DNA of 25,026 nucleotides from a virus, in the IMG/VR virus record IMGVR_UViG_3300046411_001309, positions 1-25,026 of that record. One strand, written 5' to 3'. Numbering within the stretch: the first letter of the stretch is position 1; the number at the start of each line of letters is the position of its first letter. Positions 1 through 25,026 of the stretch are shown here, piece after piece. A program made the position numbers and the translations under genes. Below the pieces are notes generated by a model. It was given only the letters and a program-made list of their open reading frames with translations, had not been told where the DNA came from and searched no databases.

Positions 1-2354
1 ACTTGACCGGTGCCAACTACAGTATGTGTAACATCCTGTTCTGTCCACCAATTTGAGTTTTCAGTATAAGTGTAAGGATCTACATACTGTACCAAGTGAC
101 TAGAATCTATATTTAAAGATGGGTATAACGATTGCATTTTAGCAATATTAAAACTATTTACAACGGGTAATATTTGAAATGGTACTTGAGAAGTTGCACC
201 ATTACTCACAGGATCTATCAGTATTTGAAAGGGCTGTGTGTACACTCCTTTATAACTAGTAAGACTATCTCCTGAACTGGCTACCATTTGTGGAGGATAT
301 ACATAACTGTTAGTTTCTGTATTGTAGAATGGATGCCCAGTTATATTAATATTACTAGATATATCGTGGTGATATGCGCCTTGGTCTTCGTTAGGGCACA
401 TATCGTCTTGACCTGGAAGATCATTTACCCATGCACCATGACTAGACGGTTTTAAATTATAAGAAGTTTCGTAAGGGCTGTCAGCTGCGTCCGGTAAACT
501 ATAAAAATAGTTATGTAAGGCATTATCAAACTTAGACCATGAAGATGGAACCTGTGAATTATATGGATTAAAACTATTTGGAAGAGAATTTGCTTGATCT
601 TCATTAAATGAATTTAATCCCTTCGCTAAAGTATACCAGTGTCCGTTGTAATGGAACACATCTCCTTGGTTATATGTCGCAGTTGTACTATAATCTCCTC
701 TATCATTCCATGTACCTATACCAACTCCATTAGCTGAATTACTATCAGCATATAGTCTTTCATTCCAATTAACGAACCAACTATATGCTCCTGTATTAGT
801 ATTAGCACCGCCGCTTACTCCACCTCCACCAGGTTCTCCTAGATATGGTTTAGCCGCTACTTCAATGCGCATTAGGGCTGGTTTATTAGGTTCTAAACCT
901 ATGTTATTAGGATTTATAAACGTACCTGTAGGACTAGGAGATATTTTAAATGATTCAATAGTTGATCTTAGAGTGCCTAAATCAGCAATTCCTGTAGGAG
1001 CATTTTCGCCTACAATAAATTTACCATTGGTTTTAAATGATATATTAACAGGCGGAGGAGCAGTTACGCTATAATATAAATCTGCTACCCCTAAATATAT
1101 TAATTGAGGATTTTTATAAAGTTTATACTCCGTGTTATTTTCGTCATTGCTAGTTTCTAACCAAACTTCAGTAGTGTCGGTATCGAGTGTAGTACTTATA
1201 TTGTTATTAGAACTTGTCATGGATAATTCTCCACCTCCTAGAATATTAGGTATTTCGTTATCCTCCGGAGAAACTATAAAGTCGGTGTTAGTCGCTATGT
1301 TAAACTGAAATGAATTTAAATTAGGTACAGTATACGATACAGTACCATTTGTCCATGTTTGTCCATTACATAAATACCATCCTTCATAGTCTGTTCCTGC
1401 AATTCCTCTCCCTACCGTTAATAGGACTTGAGAAGGGTCAACTGTCATGTCAGATATTGTTTGAGACTGTTCAAAGTTAGAAGAATTTTCATACACTTCA
1501 TCTAAGAATGATACTATAGTACCTATTGGTATACCTGCTCCTATTTCTCCCGGGGTTTTAAAACCAATAGTTCCATCTGAATCTAAAGCCACTGCTATTT
1601 TACCGTTACTAGGATCATTTGAAGTAGGGTTAGAAGGATCAGCTATATTAATTCTGAATATACTTCCTACGAATTCAGCTGAACTAGAAGCCACTAGAGT
1701 GCCTGTAAATAAAACACCATTAGAATAATCTATGGACATCATTTCGTTTCCTGACAAATCACTAACTTTAAATTTATCAGCTGAATAATTAAATTCTCCG
1801 TCGCCGGCAATAGAGTTAAACTTAAATTCTATAGTACTAGTAGATGTATCTGAATCAGTGTCTAGATTAATATCTAAATATTGATCGTAATTTTTTTCAG
1901 AAAATAACCTAATATTTGAAGTTGAATAATTAGAGTTTTTGTTAATGTTTAAAACTCCTCCTAAATTACTTAAATTCTGATTTCCGTTATATTCTGGGTC
2001 GTTAGAAGCAAATCCTATAAGTACTGATGTTGGGGGATTATTATTAGTGTCACCCTCGTTAATAGGTGTAATAGTTTTTATACTAAGATTTCCGTTTGCC
2101 CATGTACTAGCGTCTTTCCATTGTGAATTAGTACTTGTATCTGCGGGTCCTTGGGGTCCTTGGGGTCCTTGAGTTCCCTGTGCACCTTGATCTCCAGTAA
2201 CACCCTGTGCACCGGTTTCGCCAATTGAACCAGTAGCACCCATAGGTCCTCCTCCATTAGCAATAAGCTGATCGAAGTTATAATTGATTTTATCTAGTTT
2301 CTCTTGCTGAGTATCTGACTGTAAAATCTGCTTTAAATTAATAGGTATTGGCAT
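1..2354 (-). CDS. Tail fibre/collar protein with collagen-like repeat and CBM-like module (3' end outside window)
   Basis: I read this frame by hand. It is open from the ATG at 2354 to the window edge, giving 784 codons with no stop seen, so the C-terminus is missing. Residues 1-33 are a short anchor containing DKINYNFDQL. Residues 34-70 are a collagen-like Gly-X-Y run ending GPQGPQGP. Residues 275-351 resemble the phage tail-collar module: IPIGTIVSF, then GWYLCNGQTW and VPNLNSF. Residues 549-608 look like a CBM5/12 sugar-binding module (YNQGDVFHYNGHWYTLAKG). The layout matches the next gene upstream (2414-5743), so the two are paralogues. Collagen-like stretches in phage fibres form trimeric stalks, and collar modules occur in short tail fibres. 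Role inferred: a trimeric receptor-binding or fibre-attachment protein. Whether it also ends in a Hint domain cannot be seen. The start is preceded by AAAAAGAAGTA rather than a Shine-Dalgarno sequence, and a late-promoter-like motif lies 22 nt upstream. Confidence 0.85.
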   Translation of the reverse strand, partial: MPIPINLKQILQSDTQQEKLDKINYNFDQLIANGGGPMGATGSIGETGAQGVTGDQGAQGTQGPQGPQGPADTSTNSQWKDASTWANGNLSIKTITPINEGDTNNNPPTSVLIGFASNDPEYNGNQNLSNLGGVLNINKNSNYSTSNIRLFSEKNYDQYLDINLDTDSDTSTSTIEFKFNSIAGDGEFNYSADKFKVSDLSGNEMMSIDYSNGVLFTGTLVASSSAEFVGSIFRINIADPSNPTSNDPSNGKIAVALDSDGTIGFKTPGEIGAGIPIGTIVSFLDEVYENSSNFEQSQTISDMTVDPSQVLLTVGRGIAGTDYEGWYLCNGQTWTNGTVSYTVPNLNSFQFNIATNTDFIVSPEDNEIPNILGGGELSMTSSNNNISTTLDTDTTEVWLETSNDENNTEYKLYKNPQLIYLGVADLYYSVTAPPPVNISFKTNGKFIVGENAPTGIADLGTLRSTIESFKISPSPTGTFINPNNIGLEPNKPALMRIEVAAKPYLGEPGGGGVSGGANTNTGAYSWFVNWNERLYADSNSANGVGIGTWNDRGDYSTTATYNQGDVFHYNGHWYTLAKGLNSFNEDQANSLPNSFNPYNSQVPSSWSKFDNALHNYFYSLPDAADSPYETSYNLKPSSHGAWVNDLPGQDDMCPNEDQGAYHHDISSNINITGHPFYNTETNSYVYPPQMVASSGDSLTSYKGVYTQPFQILIDPVSNGATSQVPFQILPVVNSFNIAKMQSLYPSLNIDSSHLVQYVDPYTYTENSNWWTEQDVTHTVVGTGQ
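531..710 (-). other. CBM5/12-like carbohydrate-binding module within the fibre protein
   Basis: This encodes residues about 549-608 of the truncated fibre protein. The spacing of aromatic residues, with TYNQGDVFHYNGHWYTLAKG followed about 30 residues later by VPSSWSKF, fits the pattern Y-x-x-G-D-x-V-x-Y-x-G-x-x-Y that ends at a tryptophan in chitin/cellulose-binding family 5/12 domains. In those families the aromatic residues stack on sugar rings. A glycan-receptor contact is inferred, not shown. Confidence 0.45.
2145..2171 (-). repeat. Three tandem copies of a 9-bp unit encoding Gly-Pro-Gln
   Basis: On the plus strand the unit GGGTCCTTG occurs three times without mismatch or gap. It encodes the end of the collagen-like stretch (repeated G-P-Q) of the truncated fibre protein. 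Identical codons in each copy suggest recent slippage-type expansion. The number of triplets, and so the stalk length, could vary between related phages. Confidence 0.85.
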
Positions 2355-2413: not shown

Positions 2414-5400
2414 TTATTCGGTTTTTGCTTCTTCTTGATTATGACAAAGTACACCATCAGCTATATAGACATCATCTGCTTCAACATCTATACTATAAGT
2501 ATTAGATGTCTTTTTTACATGTTCGTTACTGAAAACCTTGGTCCATTTTTCATTTACATATATAAATTCTCCTAAAGATATTTCACTAACCTGCTTAAAT
2601 TGAATTATATTATTGTGTTTTACTAAAACAGGGTGTTCACCTGTTATTTTAGTTAGACCTTTATTAATATCCCTATATGATGCATGTGTTCCCTTTTTTA
2701 TGTTTACAACTTTAACAGTTGAGGTCTCTTTAATTAGTTTATTTACCTTAAAATTTCTCCATTCTCCGCTTTCGCTTAATCCATTTATTTCGTATGAAGA
2801 TAGGTTATCTCCTATTTGTAAGTTTTCAACTTTTTTAAATTTACCGTTTGACATAGTTATTAATGTTCCTTCTACGTGACATGGTCCCCATATAAAATCA
2901 GTATCAGTGTCTGAGCTTGTTGTAATCGGATAAGGACCGTTAAAATCAAGATCAATCGTTTGATGGGTTCCGGCGCTTTGAGTCGGCATTATACTAATTG
3001 TTACGTTATTATTAAAGTTGCTTATACTACTTACCTCCATTGAAAGGGTACCTGGTATATTGCTGAGTGTAAAATCAGAAGTACTTAAATTAGGCCCATT
3101 CCAATTAAAATTGGCGACTGTGGTCCCGGAACCAGTTCCCATATCCGGACTAATGCTAGTGAAATCAAATGTATACTCACTAGGCGTAGAGCCTCCACTA
3201 CAATCTGATAAAGTAGGAGCCATAGAATTAGAATTAATTTCTCTATATTTTGAAGAAACTGAATCAGCGATAACTATGTTTGGTTGCTCCCCTATTATAG
3301 GACCGTCTTTTACTAGGACTAGAGGGTGTTTTCCAGTGTCAGCTAGGGAGGTTGTACTAGACGAATGAGATGCATCTCCTCTTACGTATATTTGATCTGT
3401 AATAAAGTTAAAATTTTGAGCAGAAAAATTAGAAAAAGATAAACTAACTGTATTTCCTGCAAATGTACCATAGGCGTCTCTAGCATAGAATGTTAATGAA
3501 TTTGTTCCTGATGTATCGCATGCTGCACTACTTGAATTTGCACCACTAGCTAGGTGCCATGTCCTATTATAAGGAATATAATTATCTTTAATCGTAGCGC
3601 CTTTAAATTCGTTGTCTGAATTATTCCAATATTTTCTATAAGTCAATTGATAACCGGCAGGTAAGGATATATTATAACTACCCGTAAAGGCATCTGTATA
3701 TGTAACGCTTCTCCACCATCCAGTTGTAGGAATTACAATCTGATTAGAAGAATTAACTGACCATATATGAGAATTTGACTCATAATCTGTAAAATCAGGA
3801 TCGTTAGTGTTTGAATTTTGACTATTAGCGGTAGGATTTCCTTGAAAATCACTAGACACATGCATTTCAACAAAAACAGGATTATTACTATTTTGTATGG
3901 TTGCTAGAGAAACGGGTTCATTATTATATGTTGTTTGAAAAATATCAACTGAATTTCCGTCAACATCCCATAGACCTTCTCCATACCACATCCAACTCTG
4001 TTGGGGTTCGAACACATGTTTTAAACCTGTGAATCCTGTGCCATTTTCATAATATCTTGCTATTCCGCCAGGTACTGCCGAATGTTCTCTAAAAAACCAT
4101 CCGTCATCAACTTCAATTCCATTTTCATAAACTCTAATACCTGTCGAAGATGAAGGATTGCTAGTTCCATCGGTTGTAAAAGAAGCGTCACTTAGCCAAA
4201 AGGTATCTATTGAAGTACCTCCGCTTATATCAGCAGTCCACTGTCGCGTTACAGGATTAAGAGAAGCTGCATACCTTGCTGAAATATCAAAACCATCTTG
4301 ATCAGGGGAATCGACATATTCATGGTACCCTGCTGAAAAGTCTGTTGTTTCAGCTGTAGAATCTAAATTACCCCATTCATATCCATAACTGCCTAAAAAA
4401 ATAATACTAACATGTTCTCCAAATACGATATGATTTTCATCTCCGTAATTATTTTGAATATCACTTAGGTATCTTCCGTTTTGAGACCCTGATTGATGAG
4501 ACTGTGTAATAACACCTGTGCTAGTATTAGTTGAAAGAGAAGTTTCAGATCCTCCATATATGCTTTTTCCAGGATTAGACGTAGATGACACTCCAAATGA
4601 ATAATGAAATCCATTTAAATTAGGGGTATCATATGATATAATTCCGCCATCTCCCCATTTTCTACCATTACATAAATACCATGCGCCAAACATTCCATCT
4701 GGCCTACCTGCTCCAAAGTTTGTTCTAATGTTAGTAGTTCCACCTGTACTTAAATCTGTAACAGTTGCATTATCGGTATAAAAATTAGAAGAATTAAAAG
4801 AAGTAGAAGGTATTTTAACAATAGATCCTATAGGTAACACTGAAAATAAACTTGAAACATTTTCCCAAGTAACAGTTCCTACGTTATCATTTGATTTTAA
4901 TACATTATTTAAATTAGCTTGGTGATTAAATTTTAAGCCTCCTACTACAAATTCTACTTTTCTACCGGGTTGAGTTGCATCTACATATAAAGGATAATTT
5001 ATTACAGAGTTTTCACCTAAAGTATTAATATTTCCAAGATTAGAAATAAAATTAAAATTAATATTCCTTTGAAAGTCTATTTCATATCTATAACCGGAAG
5101 ACGCGTCGTTGGGCTTTATTTCGAAAACAGAATTGAACGCTGTTCCAAGGGCCAGATCAGATGCATTACTTATTCCAAAATTAAAGTAGTGAGAACTATC
5201 ATCACTATCTAATGAAAAAGATGATAAAGAAGAATATTCATGGAAATCCTCGTTATTTGCTCTTGTTGCTCCATTTGTTAAAACATTAAAAGCTCCATTA
5301 GAAGAAAGGTTTATAGGTGCCGTTGCAGTTGTTCCATACCATGGACTTAAATAATCTCCATTAGTGTCTAAGTTAGAATTAGTACCAATTACAGGAATAG

Positions 5401-5743
5401 CCATACCAGCAACTCCAATCGGAACAGCTGGCCAAATTACTTTTTGAGTATAATTATCTCCATTTTCATCAACGCCGTTGAGCATTGTACTTTTCCAGCT
5501 TCCAACAGCCGAAGGACCTACAATTCCTTGAAAACCAAATGGACCTTGATTTCCTTCAGTTCCCGTTTCACCCTTATCCCCTTCAACTCCATTAGGACCT
5601 TCTAATCCAGATGGACCTGATGGACCTCCATTTCTAAGAAGATTAAAATTGAAATTGATTTTATCAATTTTATCCTTTGACCACCATTCATTGCTGTTAG
5701 GATCTAGATCACTCTTAAAAAGTTCTTTGATTCTTATGTTCAT
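2414..5743 (-). CDS. Tail fibre/collar protein with collagen-like stalk and C-terminal Hint domain
   Basis: A complete protein of 1109 residues. Residues 1-38 are an anchor with DKINFNFNLL. Residues 39-76 are collagen-like Gly-X-Y (GGPSGPSGLEGPNGVEG and on). Residues 303-382 are tail-collar-like (LPIGSIVKI, then AWYLCNGRKW and TPNLNGF). Residues about 390-950 are Ser/Asn/Thr-rich, probably beta-structured, and unrecognised. Residues 955-1102 are an intein-type Hint domain that starts at Cys955 and ends HN, followed by only seven residues (QEEAKTE). The N-terminal half parallels the downstream truncated gene. Role inferred: a trimeric fibre on the baseplate or tail whose C-terminus is self-processed or cross-linked. 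The ATG follows the preceding stop by 3 nt (CATAACACATG), so coupled translation is likely. Confidence is high for a phage fibre/collar protein and moderate for the processing. Confidence 0.85.
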   Translation of the reverse strand: MNIRIKELFKSDLDPNSNEWWSKDKIDKINFNFNLLRNGGPSGPSGLEGPNGVEGDKGETGTEGNQGPFGFQGIVGPSAVGSWKSTMLNGVDENGDNYTQKVIWPAVPIGVAGMAIPVIGTNSNLDTNGDYLSPWYGTTATAPINLSSNGAFNVLTNGATRANNEDFHEYSSLSSFSLDSDDSSHYFNFGISNASDLALGTAFNSVFEIKPNDASSGYRYEIDFQRNINFNFISNLGNINTLGENSVINYPLYVDATQPGRKVEFVVGGLKFNHQANLNNVLKSNDNVGTVTWENVSSLFSVLPIGSIVKIPSTSFNSSNFYTDNATVTDLSTGGTTNIRTNFGAGRPDGMFGAWYLCNGRKWGDGGIISYDTPNLNGFHYSFGVSSTSNPGKSIYGGSETSLSTNTSTGVITQSHQSGSQNGRYLSDIQNNYGDENHIVFGEHVSIIFLGSYGYEWGNLDSTAETTDFSAGYHEYVDSPDQDGFDISARYAASLNPVTRQWTADISGGTSIDTFWLSDASFTTDGTSNPSSSTGIRVYENGIEVDDGWFFREHSAVPGGIARYYENGTGFTGLKHVFEPQQSWMWYGEGLWDVDGNSVDIFQTTYNNEPVSLATIQNSNNPVFVEMHVSSDFQGNPTANSQNSNTNDPDFTDYESNSHIWSVNSSNQIVIPTTGWWRSVTYTDAFTGSYNISLPAGYQLTYRKYWNNSDNEFKGATIKDNYIPYNRTWHLASGANSSSAACDTSGTNSLTFYARDAYGTFAGNTVSLSFSNFSAQNFNFITDQIYVRGDASHSSSTTSLADTGKHPLVLVKDGPIIGEQPNIVIADSVSSKYREINSNSMAPTLSDCSGGSTPSEYTFDFTSISPDMGTGSGTTVANFNWNGPNLSTSDFTLSNIPGTLSMEVSSISNFNNNVTISIMPTQSAGTHQTIDLDFNGPYPITTSSDTDTDFIWGPCHVEGTLITMSNGKFKKVENLQIGDNLSSYEINGLSESGEWRNFKVNKLIKETSTVKVVNIKKGTHASYRDINKGLTKITGEHPVLVKHNNIIQFKQVSEISLGEFIYVNEKWTKVFSNEHVKKTSNTYSIDVEADDVYIADGVLCHNQEEAKTE
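2438..2881 (-). other. Hint (intein / bacterial-intein-like) autoprocessing domain
   Basis: Residues 955-1102 of the 1109-residue fibre protein show the order of motifs of the Hint fold. First is CHVEGTLITMSNGKFKKVEN with LQIGD (block A, nucleophile Cys955). Next is ITGEHPVLV (block B, TxxH). Last is YSIDVEADDVYIADGVLCHN (blocks F and G, His-Asn end). The length of about 148 residues leaves no room for a homing endonuclease. The residue after Asn1102 is Gln, not Cys, Ser or Thr, so normal splicing is not expected. Cleavage at one or both ends fits better, as in bacterial intein-like domains. The residue before Cys955 is Pro, which often slows the first acyl shift in inteins. Confidence 0.8.
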
Positions 5744-23025: not shown

Positions 23026-24324
23026 TTAAACTTCTGTATAAAGTATTTTTTCTGTTTCAGTGCTAAACTGCGCCGTTTTCTTATCGTATTTTCCATCTCT
23101 AAATATACCACCTTCCATTTTACCTTTCATCATACCACTACCATATATGTAGCAATCCTTTAATACACATGTTTGATGGACGTATGAACTTTCTAATTTA
23201 GAAGAATTTACCTGACTAGATTGATAAAAATTAGATGAATGAATATCTGATCCGTTTACATCACAACTAAAGAAATCACATTCTGTAAATTCGCCTCTAA
23301 GAAAACACCTAACAAATTCATATCCTCTTAAATCCACACAATAAGGAAGATTACCTCCCTCAACTTGAATTGTCCCATTGTCAGAATCATAGTTAATGTG
23401 CCCAGTATTTAATTCGCCATGTGTGAAAAGCGTCAAAACTCTTTCTCTAATATTAGGCCAATGTAAATCTATTATTTTTTCATTGTCTTTAAGATCAACG
23501 GTTAGTTTTACCTTGCCATTCCATCCCTTATCGATATTTCTCCAATCAGATCTACTTTTTATAATTTTTTCATTTTTAGAAAGAATTTTTCTAAGCTCTA
23601 TTGCATTTAACGGTGTAAATGAAGTTGTTGAAGTGCTATCCCATAATTGAGATATAAATAGCTCTAACATTTGCAATATCTTAGAAGTTTTCTTTTCCCA
23701 ATCAGCACCACCCAAATATCTAAATTCTAAATAGTTTTTGTGTCTTTTTTCAAAGTTAACTCCATAATATTTAGAATCTGGAAATGTAAAATTACTAGGA
23801 GTAATATTTAAACCATCAAAGAAATAAGTATCAGATTTTGGTAAAACAAATTTAATTGATTTAGCGTAGGCTGAATCTTTTCTTTCTGGAAAAAACTTAA
23901 ACACTTGACTTTCTTTAAAATCTAAAATAAATTTAAGAACATTCATTTTAGAAATTCTGTGCTTATTTTCTATTTTACTAGTATCGAATGAAAGATTTAA
24001 ATGAATAGAACTTCTATCATTAGTATATCCGTTTTCTTCTATCCATTTACATACCTTGATAATCATCATTCTACCTGAATGATATGGTTGTGCACCAGTT
24101 ACAAGTTCCATAAGTTTTTCACCTCCACTCATATCTGGTTCTATTTTGAACTCATCTCTGGTAACTTCAAAATCGCTATGTGCCTTAGATTCTACTCTAA
24201 TCTTTTTACCTAAAAGACTAGCTAATTCTTTGGCAGTATCGTCTATGGACTTGTTTGAATAAAATTCAAATTCTACCCCGATAAGAGCATTCTCCAATAT
24301 TTTAGAGTTATTGATGTTGTTCAT
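23026..24324 (-). CDS. Predicted amidoligase (COOH-NH2 ligase) fused to a pentapeptide-like repeat domain
   Basis: 432 residues. The pattern of the amidoligase_2 family (glutamine-synthetase-like fold) is visible in order: IGVEFEF (Glu18, Glu20, metal/ATP binding type), EPDMSGGEKLMELVTGAQPY (residues 62-81, matching the D-x-S then E-x-V-T part), SSIHLNLSF (His108) and NYLEFRYLGG (Glu200, Arg202). Family members join a carboxylate to an amine using ATP and have been predicted to make peptide tags or modify cell-wall peptides. Residues about 330-410 have repeats of the type FTECDFFSCDVNGSDIHSSN, a pentapeptide-like right-handed beta helix. This is the first gene of the virion block, after a terminator and promoter-like motif, so it is likely expressed late. 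Its substrate could be a virion protein or host peptidoglycan, and neither is shown. The fusion to a beta-helix is unusual to my knowledge. Confidence 0.7.
   Translation of the reverse strand: MNNINNSKILENALIGVEFEFYSNKSIDDTAKELASLLGKKIRVESKAHSDFEVTRDEFKIEPDMSGGEKLMELVTGAQPYHSGRMMIIKVCKWIEENGYTNDRSSIHLNLSFDTSKIENKHRISKMNVLKFILDFKESQVFKFFPERKDSAYAKSIKFVLPKSDTYFFDGLNITPSNFTFPDSKYYGVNFEKRHKNYLEFRYLGGADWEKKTSKILQMLELFISQLWDSTSTTSFTPLNAIELRKILSKNEKIIKSRSDWRNIDKGWNGKVKLTVDLKDNEKIIDLHWPNIRERVLTLFTHGELNTGHINYDSDNGTIQVEGGNLPYCVDLRGYEFVRCFLRGEFTECDFFSCDVNGSDIHSSNFYQSSQVNSSKLESSYVHQTCVLKDCYIYGSGMMKGKMEGGIFRDGKYDKKTAQFSTETEKILYTEV
23095..23337 (-). other. Pentapeptide-repeat-like beta-helix at the amidoligase C-terminus
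   Basis: Residues about 330-410 of the amidoligase-like protein have a five-residue rhythm with central F/C/V/I (YEFVRC, GEFTECDFFSC, SSNFYQSSQVNSSKLESSYV, then CVLKDCYIYGSG). This is the spacing of pentapeptide-repeat right-handed beta helices. It probably serves binding or positioning, not catalysis. Confidence 0.6.
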
Positions 24325-24432: not shown

Positions 24433-25026
24433 TTATAATTTAAGAAATACCTTCCTAGTATCTTCTTCAACTCTAATAATTTGAACCGTAATATCGGCTC
24501 CTTTAGATATTTCTTTAATGTCAATATTATCTGGAAATTCTGAAACATGCAATAAACCTACTACACCTTCTTCAACCTCAACAAATAGACCATAATCTTT
24601 AGTAGACTTTACCTTTCCGATAACTTCTGTCTTTTTATTATATCTTTGTGAAATACCTTCCCATGGGTCTATTTTCTTTTCAGCTGGAGAACCCTGTACA
24701 AGAGTTATTTTTCTTTCGTTAATAACTTCTTTTACATAAAAATTAATTTCAGAACCTGGTTCTAATGTTCTTTCTCTATGTAATTTTGCAGTTTCTTTAT
24801 CTAAATCATTAACATGAATCATGCCCGTTAAACATCCTTCAAATTCTACAAAGACACCATATTTTGCGGAACCCGTAACATGGCCTGTTCTTTCTACTGA
24901 AATATCTTCCTGTATTTCTTTAATCTTATTAGGAATTAAGGCTCTTAAATAAGCTCTATGAGAAACTACAACAGTTCCTTTTTCTTCAGAATAACTTACT
25001 GGAACTACATACATATCTGTTCCAAT
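24433..25026 (-). CDS. S1-domain RNA-binding protein (5' end outside window)
   Basis: The frame is open through the window edge (residues I-G-T-D precede the first in-window ATG at 25014). The visible start YVVPVSYSEEKGTVVVSHRA looks like the last strands of a preceding S1 domain, so the true start is probably upstream. Counting from the ATG at 25014, residues 39-107 form one S1 domain (GHVTGSAKYGVFVEFEGCLT, then GMIHVNDL). Residues 126-193 form another (IGKVKSTKDYGLFVEVEEGV, then VGLLHVSEF) and end exactly at the C-terminus. The order of strands and the G-x-F-V-x-V/F-x-G-x-x-G-x-x-H-V-S/N signature match ribosomal protein S1 repeats. S1 brings mRNA to the 30S subunit. A phage copy could favour phage mRNAs that lack Shine-Dalgarno sites, act in replication or protect RNA. 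The gene ends in a strong terminator, so it is a separate unit from the virion genes. Confidence 0.8.
   Translation of the reverse strand: MGTDMYVVPVSYSEEKGTVVVSHRAYLRALIPNKIKEIQEDISVERTGHVTGSAKYGVFVEFEGCLTGMIHVNDLDKETAKLHRERTLEPGSEINFYVKEVINERKITLVQGSPAEKKIDPWEGISQRYNKKTEVIGKVKSTKDYGLFVEVEEGVVGLLHVSEFPDNIDIKEISKGADITVQIIRVEEDTRKVFLKL

What the first reader, a model, noticed from the sequence alone, without database searches (positions are those of the whole stretch)
2438..2881. Intein-type Hint domain capping a tail-fibre protein
The sequence shows Cys955, TGEHP, a VEADDVYIADG strand and a terminal His-Asn only seven residues from the end of a collagen/collar fibre protein. There is no homing endonuclease and no Cys/Ser/Thr after the Asn. 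Known chemistry of bacterial intein-like domains would allow thioester formation at Cys955 and Asn cyclisation. From that I infer that the fibre is self-cleaved, or that its C-terminus is transferred to a nucleophile (another subunit, a chaperone, or a host-surface molecule). Covalent self-processing at a receptor-binding tip would be a distinctive maturation or adhesion step.
Basis: partly seen in the sequence, partly recalled or inferred. Interest (0 to 1): 0.8.

Follow-up and report, generated by a model that had tools for sequence, protein, structure and literature searches.

The report
Self-processing lysine-tailed cap on phage fibre
A large-phage tail fibre ends in a small domain of the self-splicing-protein (intein/Hedgehog) family, and in its relatives the short stub after that domain almost always carries a lysine, which suggests that such caps cut themselves off or weld the fibre end to that lysine.

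Summary
Window 2438-2881(-) encodes a complete Hint domain, Cys955 to Asn1102, ending seven residues before the stop of a 1109-aa collagen-type fibre protein. PHROG_38766 matches it at 1.9e-12. A family profile finds the Clostridium bacterial intein-like (BIL) domain in the PDB at 1.9e-13. The AlphaFold model is mostly above pLDDT 90; its best fold match is BIL2 of the Tetrahymena BUBL1 ubiquitin locus, Z 19.4. By sequence it fits an A-type BIL with no +1 nucleophile.

The rule was noted first and held in loci fetched later, 11 of 11 clusters. My reading: thioester at Cys955, Asn1102 cyclisation, and the tail lysine as acceptor, as in BUBL1 BIL2. No activity was tested. Pro954, one tail without lysine, charged tails in general, and the lack of a cap in four related phages count against it.

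The parts
2414..5743 (-). fibre ORF, 1109 aa, with C-terminal Hint cap
   Evidence: contigs with 99% and 89% identical domain carry it intact
5513..5626 (-). collagen-like stretch, residues 40-77
   Evidence: Pfam Collagen 0.00068 (below cut-off), PHROG tail fibre families to 1e-8
2882..3139 (-). last module before the cap, residues 869-954; exchanged between close relatives
   Evidence: 37% aa identity to L015 and dS 0.96, against 91% and dS 0.16 for the Hint
2438..2881 (-). Hint domain, Cys955-Asn1102
   Evidence: PHROG_38766 1.9e-12; AF2 model mostly above pLDDT 90, VIA Z 19.4 to 6y75
2879..2881 (-). Cys955, residue 1 of the domain (thioester nucleophile by homology)
   Evidence: Cys in 34 of 40 clusters
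2633..2644 (-). block B TxxH, Thr1034-His1037
   Evidence: His at this position in 39 of 40 clusters
2444..2446 (-). Cys1100, second cysteine of the domain, beside His-Asn; Cys here in 2 of 40 clusters
2438..2443 (-). block G His1101-Asn1102
   Evidence: HN in 36 of 40 clusters, HD in 4
2417..2437 (-). C-terminal tail QEEAKTE, residues 1103-1109
   Evidence: translation; 29% identical to L015 over 7 aligned codons
2423..2425 (-). Lys1107, proposed acceptor amine
   Evidence: Lys in the tail of 51 of 52 (80%) and 29 of 30 (50%) clusters of short-tailed caps
3..2354 (-). neighbouring paralogous collagen fibre, cut by the window end, no Hint match in the part seen
   Evidence: 39% identity over 92 aa at the N-terminus; no Hint family hit; the complete 1073-aa counterpart in L002 shows no Hint or terminal His-Asn to my eye

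Best explanation
The fibre ends in a single-use autocatalytic cap of the A-type BIL kind. Step 1: Cys955 takes the preceding peptide bond as a thioester, helped by Thr1034 and His1037. Step 2: because no Cys/Ser/Thr follows Asn1102, the side-chain amine of a lysine in the short tail (Lys1107) attacks the thioester and makes an isopeptide bond. Step 3: Asn1102 cyclises, helped by His1101, and frees the Hint. The product would be a fibre whose tip has lost the roughly 16-kDa cap (my estimate) and carries a short peptide on an isopeptide bond. If the lysine of a neighbouring chain is used, tails are exchanged between chains. Shown: Hint fold (model), catalytic residues, purifying selection, C-terminal placement and the lysine rule. 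Inferred: every chemical step, its timing and the product. Layered confidence: Hint domain 0.99; catalytically active in the family 0.8; lysine is the acceptor 0.45.
For: Fold and family. Catalytic residues kept down to 23% identity: Cys1 34 of 40, block B His 39 of 40, HN 36 of 40 clusters. Hint omega 0.04-0.37 in nine pairs, three of them with dS under 0.1 and so rough. +1 is Cys/Ser/Thr in only 8 of 36 HN clusters. Tail lysine: first set 33 of 34; rule noted; loci fetched afterwards (18 of 45 new Hint ORFs have a readable short tail) 11 of 11 at 50% clustering, 4.8 expected; all loci then held, 29 of 30, 14.6 expected from 511 length-matched gene ends, Arg 3 against 10.8; tails of just K, VK, KH, KVD, LKL. 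Chromosomal C-terminal Hints of Flavobacteriaceae: Lys at +1 in 6 of 7, against 0 of 8 Hints with a long C-flank, Fisher p 0.0014, the +1 position chosen after seeing the data. Precedent: BUBL1 BIL2, the top fold match, makes an isopeptide bond to Lys (PMC8616854, passages read).
Against: No activity was tested. This clade has Pro at -1 (3 of 34 clusters); Pro was in the slow class for N-cleavage of one intein, though cleavage was near complete in 20 h (PMC11842431). Tails are charged overall: Glu in 24 and Asp in 21 of 34 against 13.3 and 11.8 expected, so lysine might serve solubility or binding, although Arg is depleted. One tail has no lysine (L090/L170, 291 aa) and one chromosomal tail is RS. 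One Hint with a 63-residue C-flank also has Lys at +1 (L277). The lysine sits anywhere from +1 to +10, loose for a catalytic nucleophile, and a cap that lacks Cys1 and the block B His (L004, 153 aa, tail KVD) has it too. Leaving one lysine (HNK*, in two tandem-Hint proteins) gives no obvious benefit. Type A BILs are proposed to splice through the freed alpha-amine (PMC4031507 passages), which needs no lysine. Four phages related by the neighbouring 1256-aa gene have no cap.
Confidence: 0.45

Rival explanations
1. Plain autocleaving cap: the Hint works like an intramolecular chaperone that leaves after the fibre has folded. The thioester at Cys955 is hydrolysed and/or Asn1102 cyclises; either no ligation follows, or the freed alpha-amine of the tail takes the thioester as proposed for type A BILs. 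The tail lysine serves another role, such as solubility, placement of Asn, or binding a partner.
For: Terminal placement on proteins with very different N-terminal parts; the literature says BILs mostly give cleaved products (PMC7664689, PMC4031507, passages). Self-cleaving C-terminal chaperone domains are known on phage spikes (PMC3742443 and PMC8326128, search listing with the start of the abstracts only).
Against: Does not predict a lysine in 29 of 30 tails with Arg depleted, nor tails that are a single Lys.
Confidence: 0.33
2. Covalent transfer in trans: the fibre end is passed to a lysine of another virion protein or neighbouring subunit, fixing the fibre, as BUBL1 BIL2 passes a ubiquitin-like protein to several substrates.
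For: BIL2 conjugates ubl4 to different substrates (PMC8616854 passages). In several phages two Hint genes lie side by side or within a few kb (L150, L152/L172, L180, L182, L136, L090, NCTB).
Against: No partner identified here; the neighbouring fibre shows no Hint match, though the window cuts it.
Confidence: 0.1
3. Inert structural cap: the Hint fold is kept as a knob, with chemistry lost or irrelevant.
For: Six of 40 clusters lack an aligned Cys1: two have Ser there, four have no aligned residue, one of these because the ORF is cut at its 5' end, so the fold may persist without it. Pro at -1 in this clade.
Against: Cys1, block B His and HN are kept together in most clusters across deep divergence; purifying selection.
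Confidence: 0.1
4. Relic of a splicing intein that lost its C-extein.
For: Same fold and motifs; Hint matches in phage helicases and terminases exist.
Against: Terminal placement in 30 clusters at 50% identity, selection on the domain and its absence from four related phages do not look like decay.
Confidence: 0.02

Closest known systems
A-type bacterial intein-like (BIL) domains (PDB 2lwy, Clostridium thermocellum)
   Same: Cys1, TxxH, terminal His-Asn, no +1 nucleophile, no endonuclease, variable flanks; best profile hit in the PDB, 1.9e-13
   Different: Here the domain is the C-terminal cap of phage proteins with a short (1-26 residues) lysine-bearing tail; the review passages I read do not describe such a tail. 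They differ on whether A-type BILs can ligate (PMC7765530: cannot; PMC4031507: can, though cleavage dominates)
BIL2 of the Tetrahymena BUBL1 polyubiquitin locus (6y75, 6tmm)
   Same: Closest fold, Z 19.4, 1.7 A over 137 residues, 1.2 above the best intein; known acceptor is a Lys side chain (PMC8616854 passages)
   Different: BIL2 lies between two ubiquitin-like domains in a ciliate; here the C-side flank is a stub. Its two Zn-binding histidines were not compared
Hedgehog Hog domain (1at0)
   Same: Hint fold, Z 17.3; C-terminal; Gly-Cys junction in most relatives of our domain; that Hedgehog also has Gly-Cys is recalled
   Different: Hog passes the N-terminal part to cholesterol (PMC7664689 and PMC7765530 passages); no room for a sterol region here, and His-Asn plus tail is present
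Intramolecular chaperone autocleaving C-terminal domains of phage spikes (S74 type, name recalled)
   Same: C-terminal, self-removing by proposal
   Different: Different catalytic apparatus as far as I recall (Ser/Lys); no sequence relation was looked for
PHROG_38766 'virion structural protein'; the Y3 member is noted in its record as tail protein containing an intein domain
   Same: Same Hint region; 28 of 28 aligned members match
   Different: Known only as an annotation in the records that I saw; no function assigned

Membership tests
HINT superfamily | Hint fold | tested here: met
   AF2 model mostly above pLDDT 90 over the core; Z 14 to 19 to inteins, BILs and Hog
A-type BIL domain | Cys/Ser at position 1 and block B TxxH | tested here: met
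   Cys955, TGEH
A-type BIL domain | C-terminal His-Asn | tested here: met
   His1101-Asn1102; 36 of 40 clusters
A-type BIL domain | No Cys/Ser/Thr at +1 | tested here: met
   Gln1103; in the family 8 of 36 HN clusters do have Ser or Thr
A-type BIL domain | Sits in variable, non-conserved host proteins, not at enzyme active sites | tested here: met
   Fibre; the module just upstream is exchanged, 37% identity to L015
A-type BIL domain | Autocatalytic cleavage or splicing | not testable with these tools
   Needs protein
Canonical class 1 intein | +1 Cys/Ser/Thr and a C-extein that restores a host protein | tested here: not met
   Gln at +1 and a 7-residue tail
Hedgehog Hog protein | Sterol-recognition region after the Hint | tested here: not met
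   Only 7 residues follow
BUBL1 BIL2-type conjugating BIL | Lys acceptor of the N-flank | tested here: inconclusive
   Lys present in the tail; the reaction is not shown
PHROG_38766 | Match to the family profile | tested here: met
   1.9e-12, best stretch residues 955-1104 on profile 329-470 of 478, the Hint part

The most novel reading that the evidence does not exclude
Lysine-acceptor Hint caps are a general C-terminal conjugation device of phage fibres and of some bacterial YD-repeat and surface-type proteins. The Cys1 thioester is resolved by a lysine within ten residues after His-Asn, a form of protein splicing that uses an amine side chain instead of the +1 Cys/Ser/Thr and makes an isopeptide bond at the tip of the particle.
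Probability: 0.35. Interest if true: 0.85.

Novelty: new variant of a known kind. Interest (0 to 1): 0.7.

Why it matters
If right, phages weld or trim their fibre tips with a self-removing domain, and protein splicing has a lysine-based variant in wide use that, in what I read, was shown only for one ciliate locus. It would offer an answer to how BIL domains without a +1 nucleophile finish the reaction, give a ready way to make C-terminal isopeptide conjugates, and mean that the gene-predicted end of many phage fibre proteins is not the end found in the particle. It can be tested with one recombinant protein and a mass spectrometer.

Tried and rejected
Single-sequence Pfam and PDB sequence searches gave only weak or misleading hits (Pfam best Hint-type 0.012; PDB best Ataxin-1 AXH 0.088); the alignment profile was needed. 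'Just a splicing intein' was rejected (no +1 nucleophile, 7-residue tail). A first genome-contig scan with A3 found no confirmed relative; a second, built on four prophage-type caps, found six Flavobacterium contigs. A second fold job (last module plus Hint, six sequences) gave mean pLDDT 59 and was not used, so the fold of residues 869-954 is unknown; it was not compared with any library. A tree of 49 domains did not resolve the backbone; long branches met. Conserved tail residues in the Erwinia phages (TDIVAKAEK) might partly reflect signals for the next gene, which starts at the stop codon in the record seen; I did not separate the two. Literature: ten answered searches listed no paper on such caps as far as titles and abstract starts show; the phiCbK, CBB and PaBG papers, in the passages seen, speak of terminase or reductase inteins. 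Subscription papers, such as the phage Y3 report, were not held; no virion proteomics was seen.

Rows dropped before counts: one search used 34 of 36 HN clusters (two with tails of 45 and 289 left out) and left out 4 HD clusters; one search used tails up to 26, so 18 of 45 new Hint ORFs, the rest having long C-flanks, no readable His-Asn or a cut end; one search used 98 of 137 Hint proteins (15 with longer C-flanks, 24 cut or without a readable His-Asn left out). In one search one held-out tail (L201, 343 aa) was read from a later HD; the true tail is VHDK, still with Lys. The chromosomal test left out the six prophage-type caps already counted (L242-L247), duplicates (L264, L266) and two rows without His-Asn (L259, L263). 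Control gene ends are predicted ORFs, not annotated genes, and clusters were treated as independent.

Full report
What is there. The minus-strand ORF 2414-5743 encodes 1109 residues. Residues 955-1102 form a Hint domain: Cys955 at 2879-2881, Thr-Gly-Glu-His 1034-1037, His1101-Asn1102 at 2438-2443, then QEEAKTE and stop. The coordinates of the finding are exactly Cys955 to Asn1102. The protein begins like its downstream neighbour (39% identity over 92 residues) with a collagen-like stretch, so a fibre is the natural reading. Baseplate genes lie upstream in the window (PHROG_219 baseplate wedge 2e-35, a gp25-like wedge protein 1.3e-5). The virus is akin to large phages of Bacteroidota: the 1256-aa protein of 10583-14353 matches PAU, pT24, PTm1, MaF61 and Lak phages (31 records).

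Is it a Hint domain. One PHROG family matches residues 955-1104 at 1.9e-12. A 28-sequence profile finds, in the PDB, the Clostridium BIL domain 2lwy at 1.9e-13, the Tetrahymena BUBL1 BIL2 at about 1e-12, then inteins. The AF2 model has 136 of 183 residues at pLDDT 90 or more. Foldseek ranks BUBL1 BIL2 first (4.0e-9); VIA-align gives it Z 19.4, 1.7 A over 137 residues, then a second BIL2 entry at 18.8, inteins from 18.2, the Clostridium BIL at 18.1 and Hog at 17.3. Rows within 1 are ties, so BIL2 stands only slightly ahead. The aligned range ends place Cys955 on BIL2 residue 1 and Asn1102 on residue 143 (inferred from the end points).

How widespread. A viral-contig scan with a 10-sequence alignment gave 79 loci with 54 distinct proteins; a later one 63 loci, many the same. 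GenBank phages: 67 records match, 48 of them Erwinia phages, also Dickeya AD1, Yersinia fHe-Yen9-02 and NCTB, plus helicase inteins of Vibrio and Lactobacillus phages. Over 40 clusters at 80% identity (from 76 distinct ORFs), Cys1 is present in 34, the block B His in 39, His-Asn in 36 and His-Asp in 4. Of the 36 HN clusters 34 end within 22 residues. N-terminal parts differ: collagen, proline-threonine stalks, FTPFG repeats and other modules, often followed by a glycine run and then Cys1. The residue before Cys1 is Gly in 28 of 34. That all of these are virion proteins is inferred from annotation and context of some. The cap is not universal: PAU, pT24, LR756500 and MaF61 have no match at E 0.001 (0 of 4).

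Selection and modularity. In nine pairwise comparisons the Hint has omega 0.04-0.37, three of them with dS under 0.1 and so rough. Between this protein and L015 the Hint is 91% identical, but the 86 residues just before it only 37%, with dS 0.96 against 0.16, and the 7 alignable tail residues 29%. The last module and the tail were exchanged or re-made while the cap stayed.

The lysine rule. Short tails vary in length and sequence, but nearly all hold a lysine. I noted this and measured it (33 of 34 clusters, 17.4 expected). Loci fetched afterwards brought 45 new Hint ORFs, 18 with a readable short tail: 11 of 11 at 50% clustering with 4.8 expected (simulated P 2e-5), 15 of 15 at 80% with 6.5 expected. 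The count over all loci then held is 51 of 52 clusters at 80% (26.5 expected) and 29 of 30 at 50% (14.6 expected); none of 200,000 simulated draws reached it. Arginine is depleted, 6 of 52 against 19.7 and 3 of 30 against 10.8. The expectation comes from 511 ends of other predicted genes in the same loci, matched in length; clusters are treated as independent. The first lysine, where there is one, lies at +1 to +10. Some tails are only K, VK, KH, KVD or LKL; the K-only ones end two tandem-Hint proteins, the VK one is a fragment, and KVD ends a copy without Cys1. The exception is the 291-aa protein of L090/L170.

Chromosomal Hints. In 397 genomes of the family of G012 (by its source, Flavobacteriaceae) 17 had a match. 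Apart from prophage-type caps, 7 Hints end their protein within 26 residues, 6 with Lys at +1 and one with RS, against 0 of 8 Hints with C-flanks of 90 or more (Fisher p 0.0014). The +1 position was picked after seeing these tails. Several of the seven carry YD-repeat sequence (my reading; no family search was run). In 395 genomes of the phylum 32 matched; the short tails seen were VK (L267) and NKPLDPPTNP (L268, the same as in L247). Of 13 Hints there with long C-flanks and readable His-Asn, 9 have Ser at +1, as inteins do, and one, L277, has Lys.

Reading. A-type BILs lack the +1 nucleophile and mostly cleave; splicing through the freed alpha-amine has been proposed (PMC7664689, PMC4031507 passages). 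BUBL1 BIL2 completes the reaction on a lysine side chain and so conjugates its N-flank (PMC8616854 passages). The same kind of domain here, with a lysine in almost every stub, suggests the same chemistry at the end of a fibre. This is inference from pattern and precedent. The stubs are also rich in Glu and Asp, so a non-catalytic reason for the lysine is possible, although arginine is depleted rather than enriched.

Peculiarities of this protein. It belongs to a clade with Pro, not Gly, before Cys1 (3 of 34 clusters) and, in two clusters, a second cysteine, Cys1100, next to His-Asn; these are the only two cysteines of the domain. Pro was in the slow class for N-cleavage in one engineered intein (PMC11842431 passages). 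The window's own member may thus be slower or controlled, for example by redox, which is speculation.

Verdict. Annotators had already noted an intein domain in tail proteins of NCTB and Y3, so the presence of the domain is not new. The lysine-tail rule, its spread, and the link to BUBL1 BIL2 I did not find in the ten answered literature searches listed under Tried and rejected.

Noticed in passing
L188 1624-4356 and L191 1618-4356: Proteins of 910 and 912 aa with four Hint matches each in tandem, the later ones joined as His-Asn-(Arg/Lys)-(Ala/Phe)-Cys and ending His-Asn-Lys-stop.
   Followed up: partly
L150 2-2981; L152/L172, L180, L182; L136 2538-7328; L090 2663-7293; L004 (NCTB): Hint genes side by side or within a few kb; in L150, L152/L172, L180 and L182 one ORF has an internal Hint with about 290 residues behind it and the next is a short cap.
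   Followed up: partly
L089, L091, L092 and L090 6007-7293: A group of caps without aligned Cys1 (Ser in one), SxxH instead of TxxH and His-Asp instead of His-Asn, with 35-39-residue tails.
   Followed up: no
L251, L252, L253, L255, L257, L258, L261: Chromosomal Flavobacteriaceae proteins, several with YD-repeat sequence and one with repeated surface-type modules (my reading), that end in a Hint followed by Lys at +1 (six) or RS (one).
   Followed up: partly
window 23026-24324 (-): Amidoligase_2 match (25.4 bits, cut-off 22, only profile positions 4-59 of 245) near the baseplate genes; such enzymes are thought to make amide bonds (recalled).
   Followed up: no
window 24433-25026 (-): Protein with two S1 RNA-binding stretches (1.6e-20), odd next to tail genes.
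   Followed up: no
window 2882-3139 (-) and L015: The module before the cap is exchanged between otherwise near-identical fibres, as expected of a receptor-binding module.
   Followed up: partly
L089, L090, L205, L058: Low-complexity stalks (FTPFG, PYYNPYSNPP, PTPTPT, INTIDT repeats) lead into the caps.
   Followed up: no
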